From: Agrobacterium tumefaciens
GTDB lineage: Bacteria; Pseudomonadota; Alphaproteobacteria; Rhizobiales; Rhizobiaceae
Direction: 5' to 3'
NCBI RefSeq assembly: GCF_017726655.1
Contig: NZ_CP072309.1
Span: 737,501 to 801,500, forward strand
DNA length: 64,000 bases
Numbering within the stretch: the stretch's first letter is position 1; each line of letters starts with the position of its first letter. Below, one piece after another: positions 1-26,313 of this stretch. The notes beneath the pieces are model-generated. The model had not been told where the DNA came from, ran no database searches, and worked only from the letters and a program-made list of their open reading frames with translations. Both the position numbers and the translations under genes were made by a program.

Positions 1-140
1 AAGATCCATTCGGTCGACCAGGCAAAATGCGCGGCCATGTCGGGCGCCAGGATGCTGAAGCTGTAATAGAGAGTGCCGTAGCCGATGTTCTGGGTGACGC
101 CCAACGCGACAATCGCGGCGACCGGGACGCGCTCGCTCAT
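1..140 (-). CDS. MFS transporter, N-terminal part only (ars cluster)
   Basis: This is the first 46 or so codons of a membrane transporter that runs off the left edge. The visible protein starts [18 protein letters not shown] and continues into a first hydrophobic helix typical of major facilitator superfamily pumps. Its ATG overlaps the arsH stop codon in an ATGA arrangement, so it is the last visible gene of the ars operon. In Rhizobiaceae such a gene often encodes an arsenical efflux pump (ArsK or ArsJ types), but too little is present to choose between them. The MFS assignment rests on the short N-terminus and the context. Confidence 0.6.
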
Positions 141-1259: not shown

Positions 1260-1262
1260 GAC

Positions 1263-2297
1263 TCAGATCCTTTTGGTGGAGAGATTGCGCACGGCGCCGC
1301 CGCGCTCGTACCAGCCCTTGCTGCGGTTGACGATCCAGACCACCGACAGCATCACCGGCACCTCGATCAGCACACCAACCACGGTGGCCAGCGCCGCGCC
1401 CGAGTTGAAGCCGAACAGGCTGATGGCGGCGGCTACCGCCAGTTCGAAGAAGTTGGAGGCGCCGATCAGGGCCGACGGGCCGGCGACACAGTGCTCCTCC
1501 CCGCTCACGCGGTTGAGCAGATAGGCCAGGCCGGAGTTGAAATAGACCTGGATCAGGATCGGCACGGCAAGCAGGGCGATGACGCCCGGCTGCGCCGGGA
1601 TCTGTTCGCCCTGGAAGCCAAACAGCAGCACCAGGGTGGCGAGCAAAGAGAGCAACGAGAGCGGCTGTAGCCGAGCGCCGAGGCGGGTGACATCGGTTGC
1701 CCGGCGCAGCAACTGGGCCGCGATCACCGGCAAGACGATGTAGAGCACCACCGACAGGATCAGGGTGTCCCAAGGCACGGTGATGGCGGAAAGGCCGAGC
1801 AGCAGGCCGACGATTGGCGCAAAGGCCATAACCATGATGACGTCGTTCAGCGCGACTTGGCTCAGCGTGAAATGCGGCTCGCCTTTGGTGAGGTTCGACC
1901 ACACGAACACCATGGCGGTGCAGGGTGCTGCCGCAAGTAGGATCAGGCCGGCGATGTAGCTGTCGATCTGGCCGGCCGGCAGGTACGGTCGGAACAGGTA
2001 GCCAACGAATAGCCACCCCAGCAGCGCCATGGAAAACGGCTTGATCGCCCAGTTGATGAACAGGGTGACGCCGATGCCCCGCCAGTGGCGGCTGACCTGG
2101 CCGAGGGCGGCAAAGTCGATCTTCAGCAGCATCGGGATGATCATCAGCCAGATCAGCACTGCCACCGGCAGGTTGACCCTGGCGACTTCGGCCGCACCGA
2201 TGGCCTGGAAGACGCCGGGCATGAGGTGGCCAAGGGCAACCCCGGCGATGATGCAGGCGAACACCCACACAGTCAGACAGCGTTCAAATGTAGACAT
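1263..2297 (-). CDS. acr3: Acr3-family arsenite efflux permease
   Basis: The 344-residue protein is strongly hydrophobic, with about ten predicted membrane helices, which is the usual Acr3 size. The signature APCTAMVFVWSN, with the conserved cysteine at residue 126, sits in the expected fourth helix; in characterised Acr3 proteins this cysteine is needed for arsenite transport. It acts in the inner membrane as an arsenite/proton antiporter, downstream of ArsC. It lies 3 bases after the acetyltransferase gene and 3 bases before arsC. The unrelated ArsB family of arsenite pumps lacks this motif. Confidence 0.95.
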   Translation of the reverse strand: MSTFERCLTVWVFACIIAGVALGHLMPGVFQAIGAAEVARVNLPVAVLIWLMIIPMLLKIDFAALGQVSRHWRGIGVTLFINWAIKPFSMALLGWLFVGYLFRPYLPAGQIDSYIAGLILLAAAPCTAMVFVWSNLTKGEPHFTLSQVALNDVIMVMAFAPIVGLLLGLSAITVPWDTLILSVVLYIVLPVIAAQLLRRATDVTRLGARLQPLSLLSLLATLVLLFGFQGEQIPAQPGVIALLAVPILIQVYFNSGLAYLLNRVSGEEHCVAGPSALIGASNFFELAVAAAISLFGFNSGAALATVVGVLIEVPVMLSVVWIVNRSKGWYERGGAVRNLSTKRI

Positions 2298-2300
2298 GGC

Positions 2301-2741
2301 TTATTCCGGAAGGTGCGCGACCATAAGAGCGGCCGAGGCGGGGCATAGGCTGGCGGCTTGGCGCGTGTGCAGAATGGTGGGCGGCGCAGCCGCACGATCG
2401 ATCGGGGTAAATCCGAGGTTCTGAAAAAACGGAGCGGCCGTATCGGTCAGCAGATAGACCGCACTTGCGCCGTCGCGGTGCGCCTGGTCGAGGAGCTTTC
2501 TTGTGATCGTCTGACCGAACCCCCGGCCGCGCTGGTCAGCCACCACGACAAGGGATCTCAGCAGCGCGCAGTCACCATACAGCTCCAATCCTCCGAACCC
2601 TACCAGCTGGCCGTGATGCTCCGCCTGGTAAAACGCTCTTCTCGCTTCCGCGAGGTCATCCGTGGGGAGATGGGCGGCCTTGAGGGCCGACTGCAGGGCT
2701 GCGTCCACGCCAGGGACCGGCTTAAGGGAAACGTCGCTCAT
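2301..2741 (-). CDS. arsN2: ArsN2-type GNAT acetyltransferase
   Basis: The 146-residue protein begins MSDVSLKPVPGV. Its central part, LLRSLVVVADQRGRGFGQTI, is the acetyl-CoA-binding Q/RxxGxG/A motif of GNAT N-acetyltransferases, and the C-terminal half (VYLLTDTAAPFFQNLGF) is typical of the arsenic-cluster ArsN2 subgroup. Its substrate is not established by sequence; ArsN1 relatives acetylate amino-bearing organoarsenicals such as phosphinothricin-like arsinothricin. I chose this start because the ATG overlaps the arsR stop as ATGA; an upstream in-frame start would read back through arsR. Confidence 0.85.
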   Translation of the reverse strand: MSDVSLKPVPGVDAALQSALKAAHLPTDDLAEARRAFYQAEHHGQLVGFGGLELYGDCALLRSLVVVADQRGRGFGQTITRKLLDQAHRDGASAVYLLTDTAAPFFQNLGFTPIDRAAAPPTILHTRQAASLCPASAALMVAHLPE

Positions 2742-3088
2742 GCCCCGACTCCCGCTGGCGCACAGCACGCGGCGACCTCGGTCGCCGGCGCGCAGATCTC
2801 TGGATGACCCGCGCAGCAATCTTCCATGAGGAAACGGATCAGGGCGCCGAGACCGTCATAGTTGGCGGTGTAAATGATCGAGCGGGATTCGCGTTGCTGG
2901 TTGATGAGCCCGGCGCGCTCCAGCTCCTTGAGATGAAAGGAGACGTTCGACGGCGAGACTTCCGCCTTCTCGGCGATGGCGCCGGCAGCCATGCCGTTGG
3001 GCCCTGCGACCACCAGCATGCGCACAATGTGCAGGCGGGTTTCCTGCGACAGGGCCGCGAATGACATGAGGGCTTGACGTTCTTCCAT
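2738..3088 (-). CDS. arsR: ArsR/SmtB-family arsenite-responsive repressor
   Basis: The 116-residue protein has a winged helix-turn-helix at about residues 35-75 (AIAEKAEVSPSNVSFHLKEL). Arsenite sensing is probably through the C-terminal cysteines C91, C92 and C99 (EDCCAGHPEIC). This matches the C-terminal three-cysteine type known from Acidithiobacillus rather than the CxC in the DNA-binding helix of the E. coli type. A further CC pair at 108-109 is extra. It heads the operon arsR-arsN2-acr3-arsC-arsH-MFS and lies back to back with a DUF6428 gene, so it likely controls both directions. Confidence 0.94.
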   Translation of the reverse strand: MEERQALMSFAALSQETRLHIVRMLVVAGPNGMAAGAIAEKAEVSPSNVSFHLKELERAGLINQQRESRSIIYTANYDGLGALIRFLMEDCCAGHPEICAPATEVAACCAPAGVGA

Positions 3089-3129
3089 ATTTCTACAATC
3101 CTTGAAATATTGAAACAGGAGTAGCCGAA
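3089..3129. promoter_or_regulatory. Divergent ars promoter with likely ArsR operator
   Basis: Only 41 bases separate the two divergent starts. The stretch is AT-rich, and the element TTGAAATATTGAAA (about 3101-3114) contains two TTGAAA half-sites around TAT. That resembles the AT-rich dyads bound by ArsR/SmtB proteins. The site assignment is inferred from position and composition. Confidence 0.55.
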
Positions 3130-3651
3130 ATGAACGCGCTCGACAAGCCCCTTCTTGAAACCGACATCAGCCTGGGCCGCCTGCTCGACACCATTGATGG
3201 CGTACGAAATCTCCCCCTGATCTTTTCCTATGACGGCCACCCGGTGAAACCGGGCTACCATGTAACCGAAGTCAAGGCCGGCCAGTTTGCTGCACTCGAC
3301 TGCGGCGCCGAGCACGAAGAATGGTCCGAAATCTTCGTACAACTGTGGGACATCCACGAAGACGACCGCTCCCATATGCCAGCCGGAAAGTTCGCCGGAA
3401 TCATCCGCAAGGTATCGAAGCATCTGCGGCTCGATGGATCGGCCAAGCTGACTTTCGAAGTCAGTGACGGCGTCAGGCCGATGCAGCTTTACTGTGCGGC
3501 GACCCCTGCCCTGCACAGCGGCGCGGTACATGTCGACCTGGTACCGCGGCCAGCGAGCTGTAAGCCGCGCGATCGGTGGCTCGCCGAAGAAAATCAGAAG
3601 GCCTCGGCGTGCTGTGGCCCAACACAACAGACCGGCTCGTGCTGCTCCTGA
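3130..3651 (+). CDS. DUF6428-family protein of arsenic clusters, Cys-rich tail
   Basis: The 173-residue cytosolic protein is of a kind found next to ars operons in alphaproteobacteria (DUF6428). It has no signal peptide or membrane segment. Its body (FSYDGHPVKPGYHVTEVKAG) is the conserved part. The last 15 residues contain two CC pairs (ACCGPTQQTGSCCS), a natural soft-metal ligand that could bind arsenite. It is divergent from arsR and shares its 41-base promoter, so it is probably arsenite-induced. Its biochemical role is unknown. Confidence 0.7.
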   Translation: MNALDKPLLETDISLGRLLDTIDGVRNLPLIFSYDGHPVKPGYHVTEVKAGQFAALDCGAEHEEWSEIFVQLWDIHEDDRSHMPAGKFAGIIRKVSKHLRLDGSAKLTFEVSDGVRPMQLYCAATPALHSGAVHVDLVPRPASCKPRDRWLAEENQKASACCGPTQQTGSCCS

Positions 3652-3795
3652 GTCCGCCCAATTTGGGTGAGTCCGGCGAATTGGGCGAATGTCTTGTTAT
3701 TTAGAATCAGCGAGATAGAATCCGCTCGATTAGGACCACCGACAATCGAAAATCGTAGCAAATCCCGTTCCTGAAGATCGCCTTTTGGAGCGCCC

Positions 3796-4945
3796 GTGCC
3801 AAAAACATCGCTGACCGCCGTCGAGCGCCGCGCCGAGGAACTCGACACCATCGCATCGGTGTTGCCGCTGGAACGCCGCGACGAACTCGCCGAACTGTTG
3901 ACCGATGAAGACGTCGAGACGCTGCGTCACCTCGTCAACCAGGGCATGGGCGACAATACGCTGCGCGCACTGACATCCGATCTCACTTATCTCGAGGCCT
4001 GGGGCCTGGCCGCCACCGGACAGTCCCTGCCATGGCCAGCACCTGGATCACTATTGCTCAAATTCGTCGCTCATCATCTGTGGGATCCGGAAAAGCGCGC
4101 AGGCGACCCCAACCACGGCATGCCCGCCGATGTTGACGAGAATCTCAGGCGCCAGGGTTTTCTGAAATCCATCGGTCCGCACGCGCCTGATACGGTGCGC
4201 CGCAGGCTGGCTAGTTGGTCGACACTCACCAAATGGCGCGGTCTTAATGGCGCTTTCGCCTCCCCTGCCCTCAAACAGGCGATCCGGTTGGCAGTTCGCG
4301 CTGTTCCCCGAAAGCGCCGTCGAAAAAGCGCAAAAGCGGCACAGGGGACATCCTGCAAATGCTGCTAGCCACGTGCGCAAGTGACAGCCTGCGCGACGTT
4401 CGCGATCGGGCGATACTGATGGTCGCCTTTGCCTCGGGTGGTCGCCGAAGCAACGAGATTGCCTCATTGCGCGTCGAGCAACTGACTGTCGAGGCTTCGA
4501 TCGAATTGCCCGACAGCCCTCCCCTCCCCTCCCCTCTCTCGCCATCCATCTCGGCCGGACGAAAACAACCACCGGCGAACAAGATGAGATCGTCTACCTG
4601 ACGGGCCAGCCGGTGGAGGCGCTCAATGCCTGGATGGCAGTCGCAAGCATTGAGAAAGGCAGCGTGTTTCGGGGGATTGGCAGGTGGAATACCGTTTCGA
4701 AGCGGGCGCTCGACCCGCAGTCGGTCAATGCCATTCTCAAGCAGCGAGCCAAAATGGCCGGGTTGGAGCCAAGGGAGTTTTCGGCGCACGGGTTGCGGTC
4801 AGGGTATCTGACCGAGGCGGCCAATCGCGGCATCCCTCTCCCCGAAGCGATGGAGCAATCCCGCCATCGATCAGTGCAACAGGCGTCCAGCTACTACAAC
4901 AACGCGACACGGCGAAGCGGGCGTGCGGCACGACTATTTGTGTGA
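3796..4945 (+). pseudogene. Site-specific tyrosine recombinase (integrase), two frameshifts
   Basis: Three reading-frame segments together make one integrase. Segment one (GTG at 3796, RBS TTTTGGAG) is the N-terminal core-binding domain, up to PRKRRRKSAKA. The frame changes near 4339 (one base lost) into DILQMLLATCASD...FASGGRRSNEIASLRVEQL, which holds the first catalytic Arg box. It changes again at the CCCTC repeat (4517-4536) into IHLGRTKTTTGEQDEIVYLTG and the C-terminal box HGLRSGYLTEAANRG...HRSVQQASSYY. That part carries the HxxR and H residues; the terminal Tyr (SYYNN) is present. As read, no active recombinase can be made. It probably marks the edge of an old mobile element next to the ars genes. 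Confidence 0.85.
4517..4536 (+). repeat. Short tandem repeat (CCCTC)x4 inside the integrase
   Basis: Four perfect 5-base units lie exactly where the second integrase frameshift must occur. Gain of one unit (5 bases) would move the frame from the upstream segment to the downstream one, so slipped-strand change of unit number explains the lesion. Confidence 0.75.
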
Positions 4946-10528: not shown

Positions 10529-11965
10529 ATGCGGTCTCGTTGGCTTCCAGCTCTCCTTTGCACTATTGCCGCCAGCGCCCTGGCGACAGGCTGTGCGAAC
10601 GGCTCAAACGCTCGAAAACAGGCAGGTGCCGTAAGCACGGCGGCGTCCAGCGGCACTCCTAGTGGGATGCATAGCGGAGATTTGCCAGGTGTGACCGGCT
10701 CCACAGCAGGCCCGGCCACATCCCAGACGCCCGAAAGCGCCGAGCACAAGAGACCTCTTTCCCTTGAGACCGCGGTCAGAAAGGCAGTTGACTGGCACCC
10801 TGCCGTGACGGAAACGATTGGCCGGTTGCGCCAGCAGACTGAATCCGTCAATGAAGCCCGCGCAGGTTATCTTCCAAATCTCAGCTGGGGGCTGGATTCC
10901 TCCTATAGTACCGATCGATCGGATCGCTACAGTCCGGATCTGAACTTCAATGTCTCCCAGATGCTCTATGATTTCGGCAAGGTCGACAACCGGGTCAAGA
11001 TTGCCACGGCCGGGATTGCGGGGCGGAAATCGCAAGTTCTGATGGCTGTGGATGACCTTGCCCGTGAGGCGGCTTATTCGGTCATTGAAATTCAGCGCAA
11101 CCGTTCCCTGAGGGGTGTCGCGCGAGACCAGATTAAGGATACAAAGGCCATTCTCGAACTGGTGAAATCACGGACGGACAAGGGCGCAAGCACGCGTTCC
11201 GACCTGCTGCAAGCTGAGGCGCGTGTTCAGGCGGCAGAGGCCACATTGCTGGAAATCGAAGGGCAATTGTCCCGATGGGAATCGGTGCTTGCGAATTTGA
11301 GCGGCATTGCGGGTCGGATCGAGGTATCGGATACGATACCGGCCTGGCTGTCAAAAGCCTGCGGCGCCAGGGAAATGGACTGGTCGCGTGTGCCTGTGGT
11401 CATGCAGGCAGCGGCGGATCGCGAAGCCGCGGCCGCGCAGATCGATCTCGCCAAGGCCGAGGGTCTGCCGACTCTTTCTCTCGATGCGGGAATTGGCGTC
11501 GATGTTACTGAGATGAGTTCTTTCGACCCCGACTATAGCGTCGGATTGCGGGTTACGGGCAGCCTTTACAATGGTGGCGCCACAAGCGCGCGGCGGAACA
11601 TGGCCGTGCAGGCGCTCGGCGCATCACAGGCTGCGGAAGCGCGTGCGCGGGTAGATATCCTGCGAAACCTCACGGAAGCCAGCAGTCAGATTTCCAGCAA
11701 GGAAAGCCTGCGCCGCTCGCTTTCGATGCGTCAATCGACGATGAGACAAACCCGCGATCTCTACCGTACACAATATGTTGAACTGGGTACACGCAGCCTG
11801 CTCGATCTGCTCAACGCCGACCAGGAGCTTCACGCCGCGAGGTTCGATATCAGCAACATCCAATATGACCTGCACAGGTTGAGCATCGACTGCACGTTCA
11901 ATGCCGGGCGGATGCGCGAAGCCTTCGCGCTCGAGGGCCAGACTGTTCAAGGCATATCGCTCTAG
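10529..11965 (+). CDS. TolC-family outer-membrane lipoprotein of a type I secretion system
   Basis: The 478-residue protein starts with a lipoprotein signal peptide (lipobox ALATGC, Cys22) and a Ser/Thr/Gly-rich linker. Two outer-membrane efflux repeats follow (about 90-270 and 290-460), with long coiled-coil-like helices such as LLQAEARVQAAEATLLEIEG. The motif YNGGATSARRNMAVQAL is typical of the LapE/AggA-type TolC partners of adhesin exporters. It would form the outer-membrane channel for the adhesin exported by the LapB/LapC-like pair downstream. A GGTGGA RBS-like stretch precedes the ATG. Lipid attachment is less usual for this class but occurs. Confidence 0.85.
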   Translation: MRSRWLPALLCTIAASALATGCANGSNARKQAGAVSTAASSGTPSGMHSGDLPGVTGSTAGPATSQTPESAEHKRPLSLETAVRKAVDWHPAVTETIGRLRQQTESVNEARAGYLPNLSWGLDSSYSTDRSDRYSPDLNFNVSQMLYDFGKVDNRVKIATAGIAGRKSQVLMAVDDLAREAAYSVIEIQRNRSLRGVARDQIKDTKAILELVKSRTDKGASTRSDLLQAEARVQAAEATLLEIEGQLSRWESVLANLSGIAGRIEVSDTIPAWLSKACGAREMDWSRVPVVMQAAADREAAAAQIDLAKAEGLPTLSLDAGIGVDVTEMSSFDPDYSVGLRVTGSLYNGGATSARRNMAVQALGASQAAEARARVDILRNLTEASSQISSKESLRRSLSMRQSTMRQTRDLYRTQYVELGTRSLLDLLNADQELHAARFDISNIQYDLHRLSIDCTFNAGRMREAFALEGQTVQGISL

Positions 11966-12554
11966 GCGCAACTTATTGCGACTCTCGCCGGCAGTGACCC
12001 ATCTATTTGATCTTTGTCATTTTTTACGGATGAGGAAGTTCCTTTTCCGATTGAAGAGGGCTCTGGATCGTCTTGCCTTCTTGCCACATATTCCCTCTTT
12101 TTCAGCCTTCCTCGGGCGGGACCAAACGGCACCGGTCGAAGCCGAAACGTCCTTGTGCAGCGCAAAAATACCGGCTTGTTTTCCGGGAGCAAACAGGGTC
12201 TGCAGCCTGGCATTTTGACGACGGCTAGCCACGGCTACGCCCTTCAGTTCCCCCGTGGATTTTGAGGGGATTTTAGCCCTGTCATTTGGGAGGGATCGAT
12301 AAAACAGAATCTTCTAATGCTCTCCCCGGTTGTTTTTTCCTTGCGCTGTTTCGTTTTTATGCAATTATGAGGATGGGAGAGGGCCCTGAGAGGGAAGTTC
12401 CCCTGAGACAAGAGATGAGAGCCGTTTGATACAGGCTCTTTACGTCGCAGCGGTTAGCCGTTCGCAAAACTTCATTTTCTTGAATGTTGCTTGGTGTTCC
12501 AGGCGACAGTGGATTTCTGTCGCCGATGTTGCCGCGTTGCAGGAGGACAGTTTC
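11966..12554. promoter_or_regulatory. Non-coding region upstream of the giant adhesin gene
   Basis: A 589-base gap. An open frame continues upstream of the chosen adhesin start to 12426 but has no RBS and no domain. The stretch 12300-12370 is T-rich and A-rich, as expected for a promoter. A purine-rich leader (12370-12420) lies before it. The length suggests a regulated leader; I recognise no riboswitch. Confidence 0.45.
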
Positions 12555-15500
12555 ATGGTCGCGATAATAACCGATAAGGCCGCCGGAAGTTCTCGGACCG
12601 TGCCGCTAGACAACTTGAACATAGACAAGCCCAGCATTGTGCAGATTCGCGCCAGCCGCAACGAGGTCTCCGACTTTGTACGCGATGGCGACGATCTCCT
12701 GCTTCGCATGCGATCCGGTGAGACAATCCGGATCGGAAATTTCTATCGCGAGGTCAATGGCGACCACAGCCAGCTGGTGCTGGAAGACGAGGACGGCAAT
12801 CTCTGGCTCGGCGAACACAGTGACGGTTTGGCGGATTTCCGCTTTTCGCAGATTGAAGGCGTAGACCAAATTGTTGGAGCGTCAACGAATGACGGCTCCA
12901 TTCTCGGCCTTGCTGCGCTGGGCCTGCTGGCTGCCGGCGGCGCTATCGCAGTCGGAGGTGGCGGGTCTTCTGATGATGATGGCGATGCAGACGCCGATGC
13001 AGACGCTGATGCGGATGCGGATGCCGACGCGGACGCAGATGCGGATGCTGATGCTGATGCTGATGCTGATGCTGATGCTGATGCGGACGCCGATGCCGAC
13101 GCGGACGCAGATGCAGATGCCGATGCGGATGCAGATGCAGATGCGGATGCGGACGCGGACGCCGATGCTGATGCCGACGCAGATGCCGACGCGGACGCAG
13201 ATGCAGATGCAGATGCAGATGCAGATGCGGATGCGGACGCAGACGCCGATGCCGACGCGGACGCAGATGCAGATGCCGACGCCGATGCAGATGCGGACGC
13301 GGATGCCGACGCAGATGCAGATGCCGACGCAGATGCAGATGCCGACGCAGACGCAGACGCAGACGCAGATGCGGACGCGGATGCGGATGCCGACGCAGAT
13401 GCCGACGCCGATGCAGACGCAGATGCAGATGCCGACGCAGATGCGGATGCTGATGCTGATGCGGATGCGGATGCCGATGCGGATGCTGATGCCGACGCCG
13501 ATGCGGATGCGGATGCTGATGCCGATGCGGATGCTGATGCGGACGCCGATGCTGATGCCGACGCAGACGCCGATGCGGACGCCGATGCCGACGCGGACGC
13601 AGATGCCGATGCAGATGCCGATTCAGATGCAGATGCGGATGCCGACGCAGATGCTGATGCTGATGCTGATGCTGATGCTGATGCGGACGCAGACGCCGAT
13701 GCCGATGCCGACGCAGATGCGGACGCCGATGCAGATGCAGATGCGGATGCGGATGCGGACGCGGATGCCGACGCCGATGCCGATGCTGATGCGGACGCAG
13801 ACGCCGATGCCGATGCCGATGCGGACGCAGACGCCGATGCCGATGCGGATGCCGACGCAGATGCCGATGCTGACGCAGACGCCGATGCTGATGCCGACGC
13901 AGATGCCGACGCAGATGCCGATGCGGACGCCGATGCTGATGCCGACGCGGATGCCGACGCGGATGCGGACGCGGATGCGGATGCCGACGCAGATGCCGAT
14001 GCCGATGCGGACGCAGATGCCGATGCTGATGCCGACGCCGACGCAGACGCAGATGCCGATGCTGACGCAGACGCAGATGCGGACGCGGATGCCGACGCAG
14101 ATGCTGATGCTGATGCTGATGCGGACGCAGACGCCGATGCCGATGCGGACGCCGATGCTGATGCCGACGCGGATGCCGACGCGGATGCGGACGCGGATGC
14201 GGATGCCGACGCAGACGCCGATGCGGACGCCGATGCCGATGCTGATGCCGACGCAGATGCCGATGCTGACGCAGACGCAGACGCCGATGCCGATGCCGAT
14301 GCTGATGCCGACGCAGATGCCGATGCTGACGCAGACGCCGATGCGGACGCAGATGCAGACGCAGACGCAGACGCAGATGCGGACGCCGATGCAGATGCAG
14401 ATGCCGATGCTGATGCAGATGCAGATGCAGATGCAGATGCAGATGCCGATGCAGATGCCGATGCCGATGCTGATGCAGATGCAGATGCAGATGCAGATGC
14501 CGATGCCGATGCGGACGCAGACGCCGATGCAGATGCGGATGCGGACGCAGATCTCGAGCCAACCGATGATGTCGTAACGGCTCAGGTGAACGTTTTGCCG
14601 ACGGTGACGGAAGATGTGCCGCTCGGCAGTGATACCTATTTAGCCGTCGTTAGCCTCGCCGGTCTTGATCTGCAGCTATTTGCAGATGCGATCGAATTCG
14701 ATGTCGAGACGGGTCACAAACAGGATCTGGGCTTCGATTTCAGCGGAATTCTTGGAGCCGGGGTTCTTGGTGACTACAGCCTGGTCGTGCAGAAATGGGA
14801 TGCCTCCACCCAACAATGGACCGGTATCAATGGCACAGGCCCCGCCACGGTCCTCTCCCTGTCGCTGTTTGGCGGAACGAGCGGAACCGTTCAGGGGCTG
14901 GATTCAGGAGAATATAGAGCCTTCATGGGGTTCACCGGCCTCCTTGGCGTGGGTGTTGGCGGTACACTAACTCTGGAAGGTACGGATTACGACTTCACCG
15001 AAGTTGGAGGATATGAGGCCGTCGAGGTTAGCGGCAACGTCATCGACAATGACAATGTGCCAGCCGGGACAAGTGTCCAGAGCGTGGATGGCCAGACGAT
15101 CGATCCGGGCGGAACCACTATTCAGGGCGACTTCGGTGAGCTCGTGATCCTGCAGGATGGCTCCTACACCTATACGCCCTTCGAGAACGGTACCGGGATC
15201 GGTCAGGTAGACCGGTTCGAATATACGGTGGTCGATGCCGCCGGCAATACCGGGACCGCTACGCTCTACGTCCAGATCGGCAGCGACAGTGTCACCATGA
15301 CATGGAGCGACACCGATCCAAGCCTGCCCGCGACATTTGAATTCGCAGCCACCGGCGACGCCGCAAACGCGTCCGTAGTGTGGGACAATGTGACCAATGA
15401 CGAATTCTTCAATGCCAGCGGCTCCAACCTGCTTTCGGGCGGCCTTGGGCAGACCAGCAACTATGTCAGCAATAGTTTCGTCATCACCGACAGCATGGAA

Positions 15501-16412
15501 GTTTCTGGCAGCGTCAGCGTGTCGGTGCTGCTTGCGGCGCTATCCAACGGCGTGCTTTACCTCGAACGGGAGACGACCCCCGGCACCTGGCAGACGGTGG
15601 CGAGCGATTCCTTTAGCATTGTCCTTGGCGGTCTCGGCGTCGTGGCGTCGTTGGACCTCGCCACAATCGACTTCACCGCGGGGACCTATCGCATTCGGTC
15701 GACATTGAGCGGAACGTTGGTCAACGTCTCAGCTACCGTCACCACCAATGTCGATGTCACATATACTGATCAGTATGAGGTTGGGAGTATAGCCGGGGAC
15801 GACGGTAACCTGCTCACCAACGACGAACTGGGGTCTACCTTCACAGCGTTCCAGATCTTTGACGGCACGAGCTTCGTCAAGGTGACTGGCGCAATGAGCA
15901 TACAGGGCACGTATGGGACACTCACCGTCGATGCCGACGGCAATTACAGCTATGCACCGGATACGACGCTTGCGCATTTCACCGAGACGCAGACGGACAC
16001 CTTCACCTATCAACTGGTGCATCCCTCCGGCGCGGTGGAGCAATCCGAGCTGGTGGTTACCGTTGAGCCCTCAGGTGCAGGTGTGCCAGATCAGGCGATG
16101 ATGTTCGTTGCGGATGACATCGCCGGGCTCGATAGCATCGATGTTGCGGCAGGGGATGATCCATCGGCTTCCGATCGGGTCAGCGATGATGATCTGTCGC
16201 AGCTTATCGAGGAAGATGGCGGCGAACTGACTGTCCCTCTTGATGGCCTCTCCTCCCTGTCCGAGCCGGACGATGCGGATGCAGACCTGACCGCCGTGGA
16301 AGAGCGTGCGGATATGACAGGCATGCCCGATCCGCTGGAGCTGCCCGTCGATCCGCTCGGGCATCTCGCAACTGAGGACGAGTGGAACTCCAGCACTTCG
16401 CATGTGGTCTGA
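12555..16412 (+). CDS. BapA-like secreted adhesin with a 522-residue Asp-Ala repeat
   Basis: The protein has 1285 residues. The ATG at 12555 follows a strong AGGAGGACAG RBS. Residues 1-115 form a BapA prefix-like domain ([23 protein letters not shown]). A Gly/Ala hydrophobic patch follows ([20 protein letters not shown]). Residues 144-665 are 261 consecutive Asp-Ala dipeptides, with one Asp-Ser at 356-357. Residues about 670-1200 carry Bap/LapF-type beta domains, including [10 protein letters not shown] and [10 protein letters not shown] cadherin/VCBS-like units. The C-terminus is acidic and probably bears the type I secretion signal. Sec signal and transmembrane segments are absent. The highly acidic repeat could bind calcium and form a stiff or extended stalk, as Ser-Asp repeats do in staphylococcal adhesins. 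Secretion by the downstream exporter is inferred from gene order. Confidence 0.85.
12984..14549 (+). repeat. Hexanucleotide tandem array GAYGCN x261
   Basis: A 1566-base uninterrupted array encodes Asp-Ala. The sixth base varies among all four bases and the third is T or C, so the array is degenerate rather than freshly amplified. Short perfect runs (for example GATGCT repeated at about 13046-13082) show recent local slippage. One unit is GATTCA (13620-13625), giving Ser. Two other frames, one on each strand, also stay open throughout simply because of the repeat. Confidence 0.95.
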
Positions 16413-16428: not shown

Positions 16429-16450
16429 AGGTGGACATGATGGTCCGCCT
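16429..16450 (+). promoter_or_regulatory. Intercistronic hairpin between adhesin and exporter genes
   Basis: AGGTGGAC at 16429-16436 pairs with GTCCGCCT at 16443-16450 around a 6-base loop (one G-U pair). It lies in the 57-base gap after the adhesin stop. No T-run follows, so it may stabilise or process the mRNA rather than end it. Confidence 0.5.
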
Positions 16451-16469
16451 GCCGTCGCGAGGAGCATCG

Positions 16470-18722
16470 ATGCCTGTTTCCGACATGATGGCGGAATCCT
16501 GCCCTGATACCAATGCTGCCGGTCTTGATATCTCGGGCTGGAGCGAAGCATTCCAATATGTGGCGCGTCACTATGGTGTGCCGTTTTCTCCCGGCGGTGC
16601 GCGGCAGCTTGTCGAGGCGCTGCGGGCCACCGACACTGACGATTGCCTCACCCGCATGGCAGACAAGCTTGGTCTGCGGGTCAAGCGTGCTACACCGGCG
16701 CCGCGGCTGCTGACCAGCTGGCGGCTGCCGGTGATTCTGCAGCTTTCAGACGGGGCGGTGGGTGTCGTCACCGCGCTTGCAGCAAACAAGGAAGCCTCGG
16801 TTGTTTTCAGCGGTGATGGTGGCTGCGCCACAACGCTACCGCTGGACATGCTGCTGTCCCAGACCGATTTTGTCATCGTGGCACGGCCGCAGCGCGGGAC
16901 CGTCGACGAGCGTGTGGACAGCTATATCGCGCCTTACCGCGAACACTGGTTTCGCACCATCGCGTTCCGTGACATCGGCTCCTACGGCCATGTCACGCTG
17001 GCCTCATTGGTAGCCAATGTCCTGGCGCTTGCGGGTGTCATGTTTTCCATGCAGGTTTATGACCGGGTCGTGCCGGCGAAATCCTTTAATACGCTTTATG
17101 TGCTGTTCATCGGCGTACTTCTGTCTGCCCTGTTCGATTTCATCATGCGCCGCCTGCGCGCTCGCATCATCGACATCGTGGGCAAGCGAACCGACATGCG
17201 CATTTCGGATCTCGTGTTCGGTCATGCCCTGCGGGTCAAGAACCAGGCGCGGCCCACATCCACCGGCACCTTCATCGCCCAGCTGCGTGATCTGGAGCAG
17301 GTGCGCGAACTCCTGACTTCCACCACGGTGGCTGCGATTGCCGACCTGCCGTTCTTCTTCCTGTTCCTCTTCATCTTCTGGATGATCGGCGGGCCGCTGG
17401 TGATTATTCCCGTCGCGGCACTGACGCTTCTGATCTTGCCGGGCCTGCTGGTGCAGCGCAGGCTGCGGGCGGCCGCCAACGAAGCCATGCGGGAATCTTC
17501 CCTGCGGAACGCCATGCTGGTGGAAGCCGTGCAAGGCATCGAGGACATCAAGACGTTGCAGGCCGAAGATCACTTCCAGCAGCGCTGGAACCACTATAAC
17601 GCGGTATCGGCCGATGGGCAGCTTCGCCTGCGCTCCATCACCAACGGTCTTGCGGCGTGGAGCCACACCGTCCAGACCGGAACTTTCGCCGCCGTCGTTT
17701 TCGTCGGTGCGCCGATCGTGATGGAAGGCGACATGACGACCGGCTCGCTCGTCGCCTGCTCCATTCTCGGGTCACGGATGATGGCGCCGATGGCGCAGCT
17801 GACGCAGATCCTCGGCAAATTTCAGCAGGCGCGGGTCGGGCTCAACAGCATCGACTCTATCCTGCGCATGCCGTCCGATCACCCGGAAACCGAAACCCGG
17901 GTCAGCGCGCCAACCCTACGCGGCGCCTACAGGATCAGGGGTGCCGCCTTTCATTACGGCAGCGGGGCCGGAAAACCCGCGCTCGCGATCGGCGATCTTA
18001 CCGTAGCCGCCGGGGAAAAGGTTGCGATACTGGGCAAGAATGGCGCTGGAAAGTCCACCCTGCTCCTGGCGATGGCCGGCATGGTGGAGCCGGCGGCCGG
18101 CGAAGTGCTGCTTGACGATCTCGCACTTTCCCAGATCGATCCCGCCGATGTCCGCCGCAATGTCGGCCTTTTGACGCAGGACACACGCCTTTTTCACGGA
18201 ACGATCCGGGAAAACGTCATGCTGGGCGGGCTGCATGCACCGGAACCGTTGCTGCTCGAAGCGCTTGCCATGACTGGTGCCGACGACTTCGTGCGCAGGC
18301 TTCCCCGTGGGCTGGATCATCCGATTCTCGAGGGGGGCAGGGGCCTTTCCGGCGGGCAGAAGCAGGCATTGCTGCTCGCGCGACTGCTAATCCGCGACCC
18401 GGCCATCGTGTTGCTGGACGAGCCAACCGCGGCGATGGACGAGGCGACCGAGCGCCAGTTCATCGGCCGCTTCCAGTCCTGGAGCGCGGAGCGAACGGTT
18501 GTCGTCGCCACCCACCGTATGCGCGTTCTCGAGCTGGTTCAGCGCATCATCGTGGTCGAAAGCGGACAGGTCGTGCTTGACGGAAGCAAGGAGGAGGTTC
18601 TCAACACCCTGCGCGGTGTAAATAAGATGGCACCACCGAACGGCATTCGCCGGAAGATGCCGGAAAAGAAGGCCGCCGGCAACGTGGCCGGCTTCCCGTT
18701 CAATTCGACGGAGGAGGTTTGA
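16470..18722 (+). CDS. LapB-like type I secretion ABC transporter
   Basis: The 750-residue protein combines three parts. The N-terminal C39-peptidase-like domain (about residues 20-125) lacks the catalytic cysteine, as in LapB and HlyB. The membrane domain (about 150-430) contains MFSMQVYDRVVPAKSFNTL. The nucleotide-binding domain has Walker A GKNGAGKST at about 522-530, LSGGQ at about 625 and Walker B IVLLDEPTA at about 646. It powers export of the adhesin across the inner membrane, with the fusion protein and TolC-like channel. The ATG at 16470 has the RBS GCGAGGAGC; an earlier in-frame ATG at 16431 falls in the hairpin and has none. It is followed without a gap by the fusion-protein gene. 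Confidence 0.92.
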   Translation: MPVSDMMAESCPDTNAAGLDISGWSEAFQYVARHYGVPFSPGGARQLVEALRATDTDDCLTRMADKLGLRVKRATPAPRLLTSWRLPVILQLSDGAVGVVTALAANKEASVVFSGDGGCATTLPLDMLLSQTDFVIVARPQRGTVDERVDSYIAPYREHWFRTIAFRDIGSYGHVTLASLVANVLALAGVMFSMQVYDRVVPAKSFNTLYVLFIGVLLSALFDFIMRRLRARIIDIVGKRTDMRISDLVFGHALRVKNQARPTSTGTFIAQLRDLEQVRELLTSTTVAAIADLPFFFLFLFIFWMIGGPLVIIPVAALTLLILPGLLVQRRLRAAANEAMRESSLRNAMLVEAVQGIEDIKTLQAEDHFQQRWNHYNAVSADGQLRLRSITNGLAAWSHTVQTGTFAAVVFVGAPIVMEGDMTTGSLVACSILGSRMMAPMAQLTQILGKFQQARVGLNSIDSILRMPSDHPETETRVSAPTLRGAYRIRGAAFHYGSGAGKPALAIGDLTVAAGEKVAILGKNGAGKSTLLLAMAGMVEPAAGEVLLDDLALSQIDPADVRRNVGLLTQDTRLFHGTIRENVMLGGLHAPEPLLLEALAMTGADDFVRRLPRGLDHPILEGGRGLSGGQKQALLLARLLIRDPAIVLLDEPTAAMDEATERQFIGRFQSWSAERTVVVATHRMRVLELVQRIIVVESGQVVLDGSKEEVLNTLRGVNKMAPPNGIRRKMPEKKAAGNVAGFPFNSTEEV

Positions 18723-19925
18723 ATGGCGGCCATCGGCGATCGCGATTTCTCCGGCCGGGGCGGATGGGCCTTCGGTGATGACGACGGGCGAAATCTGACC
18801 CGTTCCTCCCGCGTGGTGCGGCTCTTCGTCGCCCTTTTGACGGCCCTGCTGGTCTGGGCCTATTTCGCCAGACTGGACGAGGTGTCCTCCGGCGATGGGC
18901 GGGTGGTTCCCACCAGCCGTGAGCAGGTCATCCAGTCGCTGGAGGGTGGCATTCTCGCCGCGCTGCATGTGCGGGAAGACCAGGTGGTTGAACCAGGGCA
19001 GATTCTTGCCCAGCTTGATCCGACCAGAAGTGAATCCGATGTCGAGGAGAGCGCGGCCAAATATCGCGCGGCGCTGGCAGCGGCTTCCCGCCTCGAAGCG
19101 GAAGTAAACGGCACTCCTCTTACCTTTCCTGCGGCTCTCAGTGCCTATTCTGCACTCACAGCCGCCGAAACCGAGCTTTATACGGCACGTCGACGGGCGT
19201 TGGAGGAATCCCTGCATTGGGTGGAAGAGTCGCTTGCGCTTGTGCGCAGCGAACTGAAGCTCAACGAGGAACTTAGAGCCGTCGGAGCGGCAAGCAACGT
19301 CGAAGTCATCCGCCTGCGCAGGCAGATGGTGGAACTGGAACTGAAGAAGGTCGAGATCAAGTCCGAATATGTGGTGCGCGCCCGCGAAGAGCTCACCAAG
19401 GTGAATGCCGAGGTCAATTCGCTATCGCCCGTGGTCACCGGCCGTGCGGACAGTCTCGCCCGCCTCACCCATCGCTCGCCGGTGCGTGGCATCGTCAAGA
19501 ATATCGAAGTTTCGACGATCGGTGGTGTTGCGCCGCCCAATGGCAAGCTCATGGACATCATTCCGCTCGGGGACGAGCTTCTTATTGAAGCGCGTATCTC
19601 GCCGCGCGATATCGCCTATATCCATCCCGGCCAGCGTGCCAGCGTGAAGATCAGTGCCTACGACTATGCGGTCTATGGCAGTCTGGACGGTCAGGTGACG
19701 ACCATCTCGCCCGATACGATCCAGGACGAGGTTGACCGGGAAATCTTTTATTATCGTGTTTTCATCAAGACGGAGAAGGATGCGCTGGTCAATGCCGCGG
19801 GACGGGAATTCCCGATCGTGCCGGGCATGGTCGCGACAGTCGATATCCATACCGGCGAAAAAACGGTGCTGGAATATCTCGTCAAGCCCTTCAACAAGGC
19901 CCGGGAGGCTTTACGTGAACGTTGA
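18723..19925 (+). CDS. LapC/HlyD-like membrane fusion protein
   Basis: The 400-residue protein has one membrane helix at about residues 30-47. A lipoyl/barrel-sandwich half follows (GDGRVVPTSREQVIQSLEGG, then VREDQVVEPGQILAQLDPT), then a long alpha-helical hairpin (about 100-240) and the second lipoyl and beta-barrel half (LTHRSPVRGIVKNIEV). This is the usual type I secretion adaptor that spans the periplasm between the ABC exporter and TolC. The ATG is the triplet directly after the exporter stop. Its last 11 bases overlap the GTG of the next gene, so all three are translationally coupled. Confidence 0.92.
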   Translation: MAAIGDRDFSGRGGWAFGDDDGRNLTRSSRVVRLFVALLTALLVWAYFARLDEVSSGDGRVVPTSREQVIQSLEGGILAALHVREDQVVEPGQILAQLDPTRSESDVEESAAKYRAALAAASRLEAEVNGTPLTFPAALSAYSALTAAETELYTARRRALEESLHWVEESLALVRSELKLNEELRAVGAASNVEVIRLRRQMVELELKKVEIKSEYVVRAREELTKVNAEVNSLSPVVTGRADSLARLTHRSPVRGIVKNIEVSTIGGVAPPNGKLMDIIPLGDELLIEARISPRDIAYIHPGQRASVKISAYDYAVYGSLDGQVTTISPDTIQDEVDREIFYYRVFIKTEKDALVNAAGREFPIVPGMVATVDIHTGEKTVLEYLVKPFNKAREALRER

Positions 19926-22900
19926 GACCGGACGGGTTCTTGCCACGAAACCCCAGAACGTGAAGGAACGTCTCTCCGCCATAAGGACGTTCCTGCGCGG
20001 AAAAGTCCAGCCTTTGGAAATGCCGTTTCCGGCCGTGACGCTGTTCTTCTCCGTTTCGGATGGTGACAGACGAGCGCGTGTCGTGAATGCTTCCGGTCCA
20101 TCGCTGGAATCGGCATGGCAAAAGGGCGTCCCCCTGCTTCTCGCAGCTATGAAAGCGGATGGTATCAAGGGACGTTGGATTCGGGTGGACTGGGTAGAGG
20201 TTGCGCAAGCAACTACATGGCCGCGTCTGCGTGCGTTGCTCGCAAAGGTCAAACGCAATTATTTCCGCTTCGGTATCGCGCTTGACCCGGCGTTTCGTTT
20301 CGCCTTCACGGAACAGGAACTGAACGCCAATGCTATGCTTTACGGCGGCAATACCATCGACAACGCCGTGCTCAACGAGAAGAATTTCAGCCTCTATGCC
20401 GCAACCCGTCATGAAGACATGCCGCCATTGCGGTTTTCGGATGAGGAAGCGATTTTCCTTTTTACCACCAAGGGTGTTTTCTGCGACGAGACCGGTCGGT
20501 TGCATCCGCTCGACGGGGAAGGTCTCGATGCCGGGAGGCGCAGGATTGAGAGGCTCGATGGCGGCGTGGTGCTGTCGCTTCTGCGGGATTCATCCGCTTA
20601 TCTTGCCCGGCAGGTCAATGAGGACGGCTCCTTTATTTATGGTTATCATCCCTGCTTCGACCGGCGCATAGAGGCCTATAATGCGCTGCGCCACGCCAGT
20701 ACCACCTATGCCATGATCGAGGCCTGGGAGGTTACGCACGACCCGAAGCTGAAAGGCGCAATCGAGCGTTCCCTGAAATATCTCGCAGGCACGCTCGTAA
20801 AGCCGGCCACCCTTCCGGATGGCGAGGAGGCCGCGTTTCTTGTAGAAGCCGACAATGAAATCAAGCTTGGCGGCAATGCCGTCGCGATACTGGCGCTCGT
20901 AAAATACATGACTGTCAGTGGCAAGGATGAATGGCGGGCGCTGGCGGAAAGGCTCGCGCGCGGCATCCGGCACATGCAGGACAGCAGGACCGGGGCGTTC
21001 GTACATGTCCTTAATTTCCCTGATCTGGTCATCAAACAAAGGTATCGAACCATCTATTACGAGGGCGAGGCGGCATTCGGGCTCATGCGCCTTTATGGCC
21101 TCACGGGTGACGCCATTTGGCTCGCGACCGTCGAGAAGGCGTTCGAGCATTTCATCGCGAAGGATCATTGGAAACACCATGACCACTGGCTCGGTTACTG
21201 CATCAACGAACTGACCCTGCACCGGCCGGAAGAACGTTACTTCCGTTTCGCTGTCCGCAACATTGCCGGATATCTCGATTTCGTCGAAAATCGCATCACC
21301 ACTTTTCCGACATTGCTGGAACTCATGATGGCTGCGCGCCAGACCCTGTCGCGTATCGCTGCCGATCCCCAATTTCGTCGCCTCCTTGACGAAATCGATC
21401 TTGCGCATTTTGAGCGTGCCCTTGAAAGGCGGGCGCACCACCTGCTCAATGGTCACTTCTGGCCGGAAATGGCCATGTATTGCCGTAGGCCCGATCGTAT
21501 CGCGGGTTCCTTCTTCATCCGCCACCACGCATTTCGCGTCCGGATCGATGATGTCGAACATTATCTGTCCGGTTTCGTTGCCTATCGTAGTTACCTCAGG
21601 GAACGGAAAGCGTTTCGCGAACTCGTCCGTCAACAAGCGGCACCCCGCAATCGCCTTGGTCGCCAGACGGAGAAGCCCGTGGCGTTACCGCAGCAGAGGG
21701 AATGGACGGCGGCCGATGTCGAGGCCGCAACGGGCGGAACCTGGCTTCGCCACCCACCCGAAGGCTGGACGGCAAAGGGACTTTGTATCTTCGCGCCGGC
21801 CATGCAGCCGGAAAGCATGGTTGTTTTGCGCGCCCGCGAAGGCGACACGGGCGTGCCGGTGCAAGCCCTTGAAGGACTGCCTAAGCCGGCCTGCCTTGTT
21901 ACCACCGACCCACGGCTGGTGAGTGAGCGCGATATTCCGGCACTTCAGGTGGCGAATGGCATGCAGGCCGTTCTGGCGATGGGAGACTACGCCCGCAGCC
22001 GGATGACGGGCAATGTGCTGGCCGTAACCGGCAGCGCCGGCAAGACGACTGTCGTCGCGATGCTCACGCATGTGCTTTCCGCCTGGGGTGGCGTCGGCAA
22101 AAGCCATCACAATGCAAACCTGCCGGCCGGAGTCGCTTGGAACCTGGCGTCGATTCCGTGGGACATACCACATGTCGTTCTGGAACTGGCGATTGGCAAG
22201 ATGGCGGTAAGCGCGCGCATGGCGCGCCCGAAGGTTGCCATTTTCACCAATGTCCTGCCGGCTCATCTGGGAGAAACCAGCACGGTTTTTGACATTGCGA
22301 GAACGAAAAGCGCCATCTTTCTCGGCATGGCGCCGGGCGACAAGGCGGTTCTCAACCGCGATATGCTGGAATGGGACACGGTGCATGATGCTGCCCGCGG
22401 GGGGGCCTCGATATTCTCACCTACGGGACGTCGGATACATGTCTGTTTCAATTATTGCATTACGATGTGGCCAGCGGGCAGGCCCGTGCCAGGATCAAAG
22501 AGCACGTGATTTCATATCGCGTCGGCGCGGCCGGACGGCACATGGCCCTGAACGGGCTTGCGATCCTTGCTGCCGTATCGGCGCTTGGTCATCCTCTGGA
22601 GCGCGCGGTTGCCCAGCTCGACAGTTTTGCCGCTTTGCCCGGACGTGGTGAGGAGATTGATCTGTCGCTCGGCGGACGGCGGCTGAAGGTGATCGACGAC
22701 GCCTATAATGCCAATCCGGGTTCGATGCGCGCAGCGCTGGAGCGCCTAAACGGTCATGAAGGCGGCAAACGGCGGATTGCAGTTTTGGGCGAAATGGCAG
22801 AGCTCGGTCCTGGTGCCGCGGCCTATCACACCGAGCTAGCTACAATTATTCAGGGAAGTTCCATCGATCAGGTCTTTGTTACGGGCGAGCTTTACACCGA

Positions 22901-23084
22901 TTTCTGGGATGCACTTTCGCCGGCAAGGCGCGGCTTCCATGCGGACTCACGGCAGGCGCTGAAGGAAATCCTCCGCGACCAGCTGGCGGACGGCGATGTC
23001 GTCCTTTTCAAGGGCTCGCACAGCACCGGAATGCATGAGCTGGTAGCGTGGCTGAAGAAGAGCGCCGATGGCAGCGCCGCCTGA
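19915..23084 (+). pseudogene. Helical-toroid/MurF-like Mur ligase fusion, one frameshift at a G7 run
   Basis: Read from GTG 19915 this gene covers about 1056 residues if the frame moves by -1 at the run of seven G (22399-22405). The first frame ends at 22509; the second frame, good from that point, ends at 23084. Residues 1-170 are of unknown type (LFFSVSDGDRRARVVNASG). Residues about 200-560 look like an alpha/alpha-toroid, as in AGE/C5-epimerase-like sugar enzymes (FIYGYHPCFDRRIEAYNALR). Residues about 700-1056 are a complete Mur-ligase core of MurF type: ATP loop TGSAGKTTVV, then DDAYNANPGSMRAALERL, VLGEMAELGPGAAAYH and VLFKGSHSTGMHEL. Mur ligases join amino groups to carboxylates using ATP. 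The gene overlaps the fusion-protein gene, so it belongs to the secretion operon; it might modify the Asp-rich adhesin or a surface polymer (inference). The break may be a real mutation, programmed slippage, or a sequence error. Confidence 0.75.
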
Positions 23085-25142: not shown

Positions 25143-25606
25143 GCACGCGAATGTGTCTCGATGTCGACGTCCTGAAAAAGTCACAACCGGCGCTCAGCCC
25201 ATCAAGGGCGTTTGGCCTCCTTTTGCTGGCGTTATTCGAATGTGCCTTCGCCCACGGCATCAAAACACTCGTGTCGAATTACGAGCCACCAATGGAGAGG
25301 GTATACCGGCGAGCGGGATTGAGAGTGAAGGAGATTGGCCGTGCCGACGGTTACGGCCGGCTCCCGGTGTGTTGCGGCGTATTCACTGTTTCAGCCGAAA
25401 CGCTTCAACAAATGCGAAAAGTCCTTCGCGTTGCGCAACCTCTGTACGGGCACACTCTGCCCGACCGGACGGAAGCGACGGACTGGCAAACGCCTCGAAG
25501 CTCGGATCCTGTCAAGCCGCTCAGAAGAACGAGGCACTACTGGACCTGCAATGCAGCTCGCGGCCAGTCGTGTCTCTCAAGGGCGGGGCGAAAAGACCTG
25601 GGATGA
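25142..25606 (+). pseudogene. AHL synthase (TraI/LuxI family), C-terminal part only
   Basis: From 25142 the + strand reads GTRMCLDVDVL...LLLALFECAFAHGIKTLVSN...RVYRRAGLRVKEIGRADGYGR...PVCCGVFTVSAETLQQMRKV. This matches the C-terminal half of the intact synthase at 55762-56550 (GTRMCID...LLLALCEVALDHGIETLVSNYEP...FPVCCGIFEVS). The N-terminal half with the conserved R/F/W substrate residues is missing, and a stop codon lies just upstream of the junction. The frame ends in an ATGA overlap with the start of the LuxR gene, so the original unit was a synthase-regulator operon. It cannot make a signal as it stands. Confidence 0.85.
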
Positions 25607-26313
25607 AAATCTGGCTGCGCAAATTAATCGATACGACCTCCATGATGAAAACCAGCCAGGCGACGGCCGAACTGCTGGATCATCTCACGCGTGAGCTTCG
25701 GTTTGACTATTATCACGTGGTGACTGTCCGTCACCCCGGATTGGGAAACGCCATTTTGTCCAATGCCCCGGAGGAGTGGCTGGACAGATATGCGCAGGAG
25801 CGTTTTGACAGGATCGATCCGATCCTCATCCGTGCCCGAGAAATAATGGCGCCATTTGTCGTTGATATTGAGAATGAGGGAAAAGGCGCACGCGGACAGC
25901 TTCAGGCATTCTTTTCCAGTGCCGGCGAGGCGGGCATCAGAGCTGGCATATGCATGCCGGTGCTAGCGCCATTCAGCGATTTGTTCGCCCTCTCACTGTT
26001 CACCGGCGATGTCACGTTGCCACGCAAACACCTACTGCAGCCCGTCTTGAGTGCAAACGCTGCGGCCTTACTCCATAAGTGCGTCGAAGCAACCGAGGCG
26101 GCATCTACAAGAGCACCCGCCGTCGAATTGACGGCGCGGCAGTCCATGGTGCTCAAATGGGCTGCTGAGGGAAAAACGACCCAGGAGATAGCGCTGCTTG
26201 AGAACATGACGCACCACACTGTCAATTTTCATATGAAGAACATTCGGCGGAAACTTAAGACCGTCACCCTTCCCCAGACGACCGCATTAGCCACAAAGTT
26301 GAAACTGATCTAA
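25603..26313 (+). CDS. LuxR-family quorum-sensing regulator
   Basis: The 236-residue protein has an N-terminal autoinducer-binding domain (about 15-165; FDYYHVVTVRHPGLGNAI, LDRYAQERFDRIDPILIRAR) and a C-terminal LuxR helix-turn-helix (ELTARQSMVLKWAAEGKTTQ, then HTVNFHMKNIRRKL). Like other LuxR-type proteins it would bind DNA when loaded with an acyl-homoserine lactone. The start overlaps the stop of the truncated AHL-synthase frame. With its own synthase destroyed it may act as a solo that reads signals made by the intact synthase at 55762-56550, or by neighbours. Confidence 0.88.
   Translation: MKIWLRKLIDTTSMMKTSQATAELLDHLTRELRFDYYHVVTVRHPGLGNAILSNAPEEWLDRYAQERFDRIDPILIRAREIMAPFVVDIENEGKGARGQLQAFFSSAGEAGIRAGICMPVLAPFSDLFALSLFTGDVTLPRKHLLQPVLSANAAALLHKCVEATEAASTRAPAVELTARQSMVLKWAAEGKTTQEIALLENMTHHTVNFHMKNIRRKLKTVTLPQTTALATKLKLI

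What the first reader, a model, noticed from the sequence alone, without database searches (positions are those of the whole stretch)
19915..23084. Mur-ligase fusion translationally tied to an adhesin exporter
The gene overlaps the fusion-protein gene by 11 bases, so it is part of the secretion operon. Its MurF-like core makes amide bonds to carboxylates. The exported adhesin offers about 260 Asp side chains. An enzyme that decorates Asp residues of a secreted repeat protein, or builds an attached polymer, would be new to my knowledge. The sugar-enzyme-like helical domain in the same chain suggests an amino-sugar donor.
Basis: inference. Interest (0 to 1): 0.75.

Follow-up and report, generated by a model that had tools for sequence, protein, structure and literature searches.

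The report
Ligase paired with Asp-repeat adhesins
Next to the exporter of a giant adhesin, this Agrobacterium-like genome holds a gene (its reading frame is broken here) for a fusion of a sugar-epimerase-like part and a cell-wall-type ligase; its relatives in other bacteria, Gram-positives included, often sit beside surface proteins with an aspartate at every second position, and the ligase would likely hang amino-acid groups on those aspartates, which would be a new kind of protein decoration.

Summary
The gene is real, and the idea that it serves the adhesin's aspartate repeat is much strengthened. The chain joins a constant part (ND: sugar-2-epimerase-type barrel behind a small alpha/beta domain) to a MurF-like ligase that keeps the ATP and catalytic motifs but not the DSR motif of MurF's first domain. 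Here the frame breaks near 22400; 16 of 19 ND-Mur fusions examined are intact. Repeats with Asp at every second place lie near 61 of 94 ND rows (40 of 52 with 9 kb both sides). Of 40 same-family genomes with BapA-type adhesins, the repeat was seen in 18 of 19 with ND and 0 of 21 without. The tie is to the repeat, not the exporter: T1SS, autotransporter and LPXTG proteins occur. GT4 partners go with Ser-Asp (11 of 11), Mur with Ala-Asp (32 of 34), though only about four switches underlie this. ND matches, by place and length, GtfC, reported to be needed for full glycosylation of the Pls repeat in Staphylococcus. Best reading: ND serves the Asp-X repeat and the Mur part likely amidates Asp. That chemistry is untested.

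The parts
10529..11965 (+). TolC-type outer membrane protein of the T1SS
   Evidence: OEP; TIGR01844 238.4 bits, cut-off 225.15
12426..16412 (+). BapA/GNV-type giant adhesin (longest ORF; the true start may lie downstream)
   Evidence: BapA_N 86.2 bits; NF045619 381.1 bits, cut-off 180
12954..14579 (+). Asp-Ala repeat of the adhesin: 542 residues, 267 Asp, 260 Ala, 3 Ser
16431..18722 (+). T1SS permease/ATPase, LssB type
   Evidence: TIGR03375 792.8 bits, cut-off 693.1
18723..19925 (+). HlyD-type adaptor (membrane fusion protein)
   Evidence: TIGR01843 309.7 bits, cut-off 208.65
19915..22509 (+). first open frame of the fusion gene: ND plus the first part of the Mur ligase, ends at a stop
20032..20559 (+). 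ND part 1: alpha/beta domain with a weak fold match to 1vaj
20542..21594 (+). ND part 2: alpha/alpha barrel of cellobiose-2-epimerase type
21703..22398 (+). MurF-like diverged domain 1 and ATP-binding middle domain with P-loop
   Evidence: P0001 597-828 against NF010693; motifs
22398..23084 (+). MurF-like C-terminal domain in a different frame (frame break near 22395-22415, beside a run of G)
   Evidence: Mur_ligase_C 77 bits
23110..24156 (-). alpha/beta hydrolase with a hydrophobic N-terminus; its family lies within 8 kb of 17 of 48 Mur-partnered ND rows and of 0 of 15 GT-partnered ones

Best explanation
The gene encodes the Mur-ligase branch of a modular family that likely modifies surface proteins with an aspartate at every second position; its constant part, ND, is found beside such Asp-X repeats in Gram-negative and Gram-positive bacteria, and its MurF-like part would activate the Asp side-chain carboxylates with ATP and join an amine to them. 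Shown: ND with a swappable partner module, its linkage to Asp-X repeats, MurF catalytic motifs kept, and a diverged first domain without MurF's DSR motif. Inferred: ND recognises or primes the repeat in the cytoplasm before export; the Mur part uses Asp as the carboxylate and an amino acid or short peptide (perhaps D-Ala-D-Ala, as in MurF) as the amine; a neighbouring hydrolase or DD-peptidase trims the product outside. Where the partner is a GT4 enzyme the repeat is Ser-Asp, and Ser would be the sugar acceptor, as reported for Pls. In this genome the gene's frame is broken, so this copy may be silent unless the break is an assembly error.
For: Asp-X repeats within 15 kb for 61 of 94 non-identical ND rows, 40 of 52 where both flanks reach 9 kb; loci were fetched by ND, so the repeat was not selected for. 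Control: 40 same-family genomes with BapA_N: repeat seen in 18 of 19 with ND and 0 of 21 without (36 of the latter's 37 BapA_N regions fetched, some cut by contig ends). One genome has the repeat adhesin and ND-Mur on different contigs (L170, L122). Inside the repeats the other residue varies (A 7503, S 1821, G 446, rows of one locus counted twice in L045) while Asp stays. GT4 partner: Ser 11 of 11; Mur partner: Ala 32, Ser 2; neither: Ala 11, Gly 5. Staphylococcus shows both: L207 Ser-Asp with a convergent GT; L072, L077 and L206 mixed repeats with Ala two to three times Ser, with Mur; their ND is 70.7-72.1% identical to that of L207. ND matches GtfC by length (538 aa) and place directly after pls (PMC5230774). 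The Mur part keeps the P-loop, Glu, Lys and DDAYNANPGSM-type motifs; three intact relatives score 252.9-271.2 with murF, under the cut-off of 288.6 that the genome's own MurF passes with 380.6. Other members carry peptide-chemistry modules: PGA_cap, VanY, YheC/D ATP-grasp.
Against: No biochemistry: neither the Asp nor the amine is shown. The partner-repeat match rests on about four partner switches; only two independent pairs lie on well-supported branches and the sign test cannot reach 0.05; counted from the repeat side, three pairs, of which two agree and one shows no partner difference. So the Fisher p of 7.7e-9 overstates. Two Methylobacter loci have Mur with Ser-Asp (L018, L028). 33 of 94 ND rows show no repeat, 12 of them with 9 kb on both sides; two of those 12 proved to have one farther off (L210, L170). 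Some Mur copies are broken (window, L016, L020) or lack the P-loop (L077). A second MurF model (NF010693) aligns almost from its start in L009 and L012, so a first domain is present and may still bind a nucleotide sugar. Published mass spectra of Pls found HexNAc peptides with unmodified Asp, though acid cleavage after Asp would favour those. ND's fold suggests sugar chemistry.
Confidence: 0.5

Rival explanations
1. ND is a glycosyl-transferring or sugar-epimerising enzyme that puts or alters a sugar on the repeat, and the Mur part joins an amino acid to a carboxylate on that sugar rather than to Asp.
For: ND barrel has a sugar 2-epimerase fold; a weak sub-threshold Glyco_hydro_76 match in L077; GtfC was needed for full glycosylation of Pls; a first Mur domain is still present.
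Against: DA and DG repeats have no hydroxyl to carry an O-glycan, yet ND is there; the ND part matched no glycosyltransferase model in Pfam.
Confidence: 0.25
2. The fusion makes a free or wall-bound amino-acid polymer (poly-glutamate-like) that only interacts with the adhesin.
For: PGA_cap, the capsule-synthesis domain, is fused between ND and Mur in some members.
Against: No PGA_cap match in the window's fusion; the repeat is there also where ND has no Mur or GT partner.
Confidence: 0.12
3. The copy here is a decaying passenger; the break means no function in this strain.
For: The frame is broken; L016 and L020 also break their frame; the seven same-genus genomes of the sample have no ND match.
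Against: Says nothing about the family; 16 of 19 ND-Mur loci have one intact ORF, and the neighbouring T1SS and adhesin frames are open.
Confidence: 0.1
4. Linkage is chance or shared mobility.
For: ND is rare and patchy: 26 of 394 family genomes and 3 of 385 class genomes, this one included.
Against: 18 of 19 against 0 of 21 genomes (with 49, 56, 73); three kinds of surface protein and several phyla.
Confidence: 0.03

Closest known systems
GtfC/GtfD modification of the Pls SD repeat, Staphylococcus aureus (PMC5230774; sections 10 and 13 and passages read)
   Same: 538-aa protein directly downstream of an Asp-X repeat surface protein, working with a second enzyme; the layout is seen again in L207 with an ND protein
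   Different: The second enzyme there is a glycosyltransferase and HexNAc sits most probably on Ser; here it is a MurF-like ligase fused to ND and the repeat has Ala
MurF, UDP-MurNAc-tripeptide:D-Ala-D-Ala ligase
   Same: ATP-binding and C-terminal domains, catalytic motifs
   Different: DSR motif of the first domain lacking, score below the family's cut-off, fused to ND; the genome's own MurF is a separate gene
Cellobiose 2-epimerase / N-acylglucosamine 2-epimerase fold
   Different: about 12% identity, extra N-terminal domain, no family match in Pfam and no sequence match in the PDB at E below 0.02
CapA (PGA_cap) with CapB-type Mur ligase, poly-gamma-glutamate synthesis (pairing recalled)
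   Same: PGA_cap and a Mur ligase in one chain in some members
   Different: ND and an Asp-X protein recur instead; PGA_cap is missing in the window
SdgA/SdgB glycosylation of SD-repeat proteins (passages of PMC5230774 and PMC7029136)
   Same: Enzymes that decorate an Asp-containing dipeptide repeat
   Different: Glycosyltransferases acting on the SD repeat; no Mur ligase mentioned in the passages seen

Membership tests
GtfC family (ND) | ND sequence homology over the full domain | tested here: inconclusive
   The S. haemolyticus 538-aa protein after pls aligns with the window ND at 36% identity; the sequence of GtfC of strain COL itself was not compared
GtfC family (ND) | encoded beside an Asp-X repeat surface protein | tested here: met
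   267-Asp repeat 5.3 kb upstream
GtfC/GtfD glycosylation pair | glycosyltransferase partner enzyme | tested here: not met
   The partner in the window is Mur_ligase_M and Mur_ligase_C
GtfC/GtfD glycosylation pair | HexNAc on repeat Ser | not testable with these tools
   no mass spectrometry; the window repeat has 3 Ser beside 267 Asp
MurF | score above the curated family cut-off | tested here: not met
   intact relatives 252.9, 271.2, 257.6 (and L072 197.6) against 288.6; own MurF 380.6; window pieces 98.9 and 137.7 apart
MurF | UDP-binding first domain | tested here: inconclusive
   TIGR01143 aligns only from position 37-43 in L009, L012, L040, but NF010693 from position 5-8 in L009 and L012; the DSR motif of the own MurF is lacking; that it binds UDP is recalled
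MurF | P-loop and catalytic motifs | tested here: met
   GSAGKTT, conserved Glu, His, Lys, DDAYNANPGSM
N-acylglucosamine/cellobiose 2-epimerase | alpha/alpha barrel fold | tested here: met
N-acylglucosamine/cellobiose 2-epimerase | family sequence model match | tested here: not met
   no such Pfam match for the ND part
N-acylglucosamine/cellobiose 2-epimerase | catalytic His pair in place | not tested
   no residue-level structural alignment at hand
AMMECR1 | fold of ND residues 1-176 | tested here: inconclusive

The most novel reading that the evidence does not exclude
A MurF-type ligase has left the cell wall and works on protein: guided by ND, which serves Asp-X repeats whatever the secretion route, it amidates hundreds of Asp side chains of an adhesin with amino acids or D-Ala-type peptides. 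ND is a universal repeat-serving module onto which evolution plugs different chemistries (glycosyltransferase, Mur ligase, ATP-grasp, CapA-like, methyltransferase).
Probability: 0.4. Interest if true: 0.9.

Novelty: new variant of a known kind. Interest (0 to 1): 0.78.

Why it matters
It links unexplained DA, SD and DG stalks of giant surface proteins in several phyla to one enzyme module with exchangeable chemistry, and makes the open question of what GtfC does testable. If Mur ligases can modify protein side chains, that is a new use of a cell-wall enzyme fold and a possible route to protease-resistant surface stalks.

Tried and rejected
Translational coupling as the core of the finding: rejected, since the overlap is not conserved and eight loci have the gene on the other strand. 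A tie to T1SS as such: rejected (37 of 94 rows have a T1SS ABC within 10 kb; autotransporter in L063, LPXTG proteins in L076 and L207). Sequence relatives of ND in the PDB: one row only, E 0.02, unconvincing. A neighbour search gave the hydrolase and a family of about 319 residues without a Pfam match. Literature: no listed title named a Mur ligase acting on a repeat adhesin; five of these searches held more papers than were listed (20 of 49, 25 of 37, 20 of 22, 15 of 35,203, 12 of 52), and the library holds open-licence PMC papers only.

Families missing from the VIA listings are not taken as evidence against them.

Full report
What is there. The window lies in a two-contig genome of 5.08 Mb whose best plasmid-collection matches over the operon are Agrobacterium records at 75-77% identity. 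The operon reads TolC, BapA/GNV adhesin, T1SS ABC, HlyD, fusion gene, with an alpha/beta hydrolase convergent to it. The fusion gene's first frame (19915-22509) carries the N-terminal domain and the first part of a Mur ligase; the ligase's C-terminal domain lies in another frame (22398-23084), so the copy is broken near a run of G. Of 19 loci with ND followed directly by Mur (L007-L024, L040), 16 have both in one ORF of 1038-1331 residues, L016 and L020 break, and L018 is cut by its contig end.

The ligase. The P-loop, a Glu, a Lys and the DDAYNANPGSM motif are kept. Three intact relatives score 252.9, 271.2 and 257.6 against the murF model (cut-off 288.6) and align to it only from position 37-43; the genome's own MurF scores 380.6 from position 1. 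Against this, a second MurF model (NF010693) aligns from position 5-8 in two of the three. So this is a MurF offshoot with a diverged first domain that lacks the DSR motif, which I recall as part of the UDP-sugar site.

The repeat link. I scanned fetched loci for stretches of at least 30 residues with Asp at 80% of every second place. Of 94 non-identical ND rows, 61 have such a repeat within 15 kb; where both flanks reach 9 kb it is 40 of 52, and 21 of 42 otherwise. The row for the window itself (L081) is a 4.6-kb piece and counts as without, although the window has the repeat. Of the 12 full-flank misses, one genome has the repeat just beyond the piece (L127, seen in L210) and one on another contig (L122, seen in L170).

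Control. A search of 394 genomes of the window's family gave ND in 26 and BapA_N in 40. Of the 40, 19 have ND and 18 of these show the repeat in the regions examined; in the miss, G419, the region is cut by a contig end. The 21 without ND have 37 BapA_N matches, of which 36 regions were fetched, none with the repeat; several are cut by contig ends. Effort was not equal: in genomes with ND the regions around both ND and, in part, BapA_N were read. Five of the ND-free adhesins, read out after BapA_N, show ordinary sequence. Fisher p is 1.7e-10, not corrected for kinship.

Partners. ND has within 5 kb a Mur ligase (48 rows), a GT4 enzyme (15), both (4) or neither (27). Among rows with a repeat, GT4 goes with Ser in 11 of 11, Mur with Ala in 32 and Ser in 2 (L018 and L028, Methylobacter), neither with Ala in 11 and Gly in 5. 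On a quick tree of 94 ND rows the partner changes at least four times; two independent pairs lie on well-supported branches and the repeat goes the same way in nearly all pairings, too few for significance; counted from the repeat side it is two of three. Further modules are PGA_cap, VanY, YheC/D ATP-grasp and a methyltransferase fused to ND in L033. Carrier proteins are T1SS adhesins, an autotransporter with Gly-Asp repeats (L063) and LPXTG proteins (L076, L207; Listeria L078, as annotated).

Known relative. PMC5230774 (sections 10 and 13 and passages read) reports that GtfC, 538 residues, directly after pls and not predicted as a glycosyltransferase by CAZy, and GtfD, a predicted glycosyltransferase transcribed towards it, are both needed for full glycosylation of Pls, with HexNAc most probably on Ser of the repeat; GtfD of one strain alone gave weak glycosylation. 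In S. haemolyticus a 538-residue ND protein directly follows pls and is followed by a Mur ligase (L077; that Mur copy lacks the P-loop stretch, whereas L072 has it). In an S. epidermidis plasmid an adhesin, ND and a convergent glycosyltransferase repeat the published layout, with Ser-Asp repeats (L207). I take ND as GtfC-type on this ground; strain COL's sequence was not compared. The paper's peptides were freed by acid cleavage after Asp, which would under-report Asp carrying a group; that last step is my inference.

Mechanism. Since Asp is the constant residue, Ser is mostly found where a glycosyltransferase is, and Ala or Gly where it is not, ND most likely serves the Asp-X backbone and the partner supplies the chemistry. 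A Mur ligase needs a carboxylate and an amine; the repeat offers 267 Asp carboxylates. DD-peptidase-type enzymes in or near some members (VanY in L043 and L046, Peptidase_S11 beside L077) fit an amine of D-Ala type but do not prove it. All chemistry is inferred.

Verdict. The finding's core intuition is well supported as an association and open as chemistry. Interest 0.78.

Noticed in passing
window 1-4933: Region matches arsenic-resistance clusters of Agrobacterium and Rhizobium plasmids at about 81-85% identity.
   Followed up: no
window 25153-26313: LuxR/TraR-type autoinducer-binding regulator near the operon.
   Followed up: no
window 12871-14577 and 12943-14562: Long, probably spurious ORFs in other frames across the Asp-Ala repeat.
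   Followed up: no
L063 6834-9914: Autotransporter with Gly-Asp repeats directly upstream of an ND gene without a Mur or GT partner.
   Followed up: partly
L026 11830-13314: Amidase-family gene 210 bases downstream of ND; genes of its cluster occur in five ND loci without a Mur or GT partner.
   Followed up: no
L033 9995-13327: ND fused to a methyltransferase domain beside a mixed DA/DS repeat.
   Followed up: no
L170 and L122: In genome G678 the Asp-Ala adhesin and ND-Mur lie on different contigs, so the pair could act in trans.
   Followed up: partly
L061 8937-9896: Family of about 319 residues without a Pfam match near ND in 12 loci, mostly Mur-partnered.
   Followed up: no
L077 11471-13201: Mur ligase after pls and ND lacks the P-loop stretch found in L072, so it may be inactive.
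   Followed up: no
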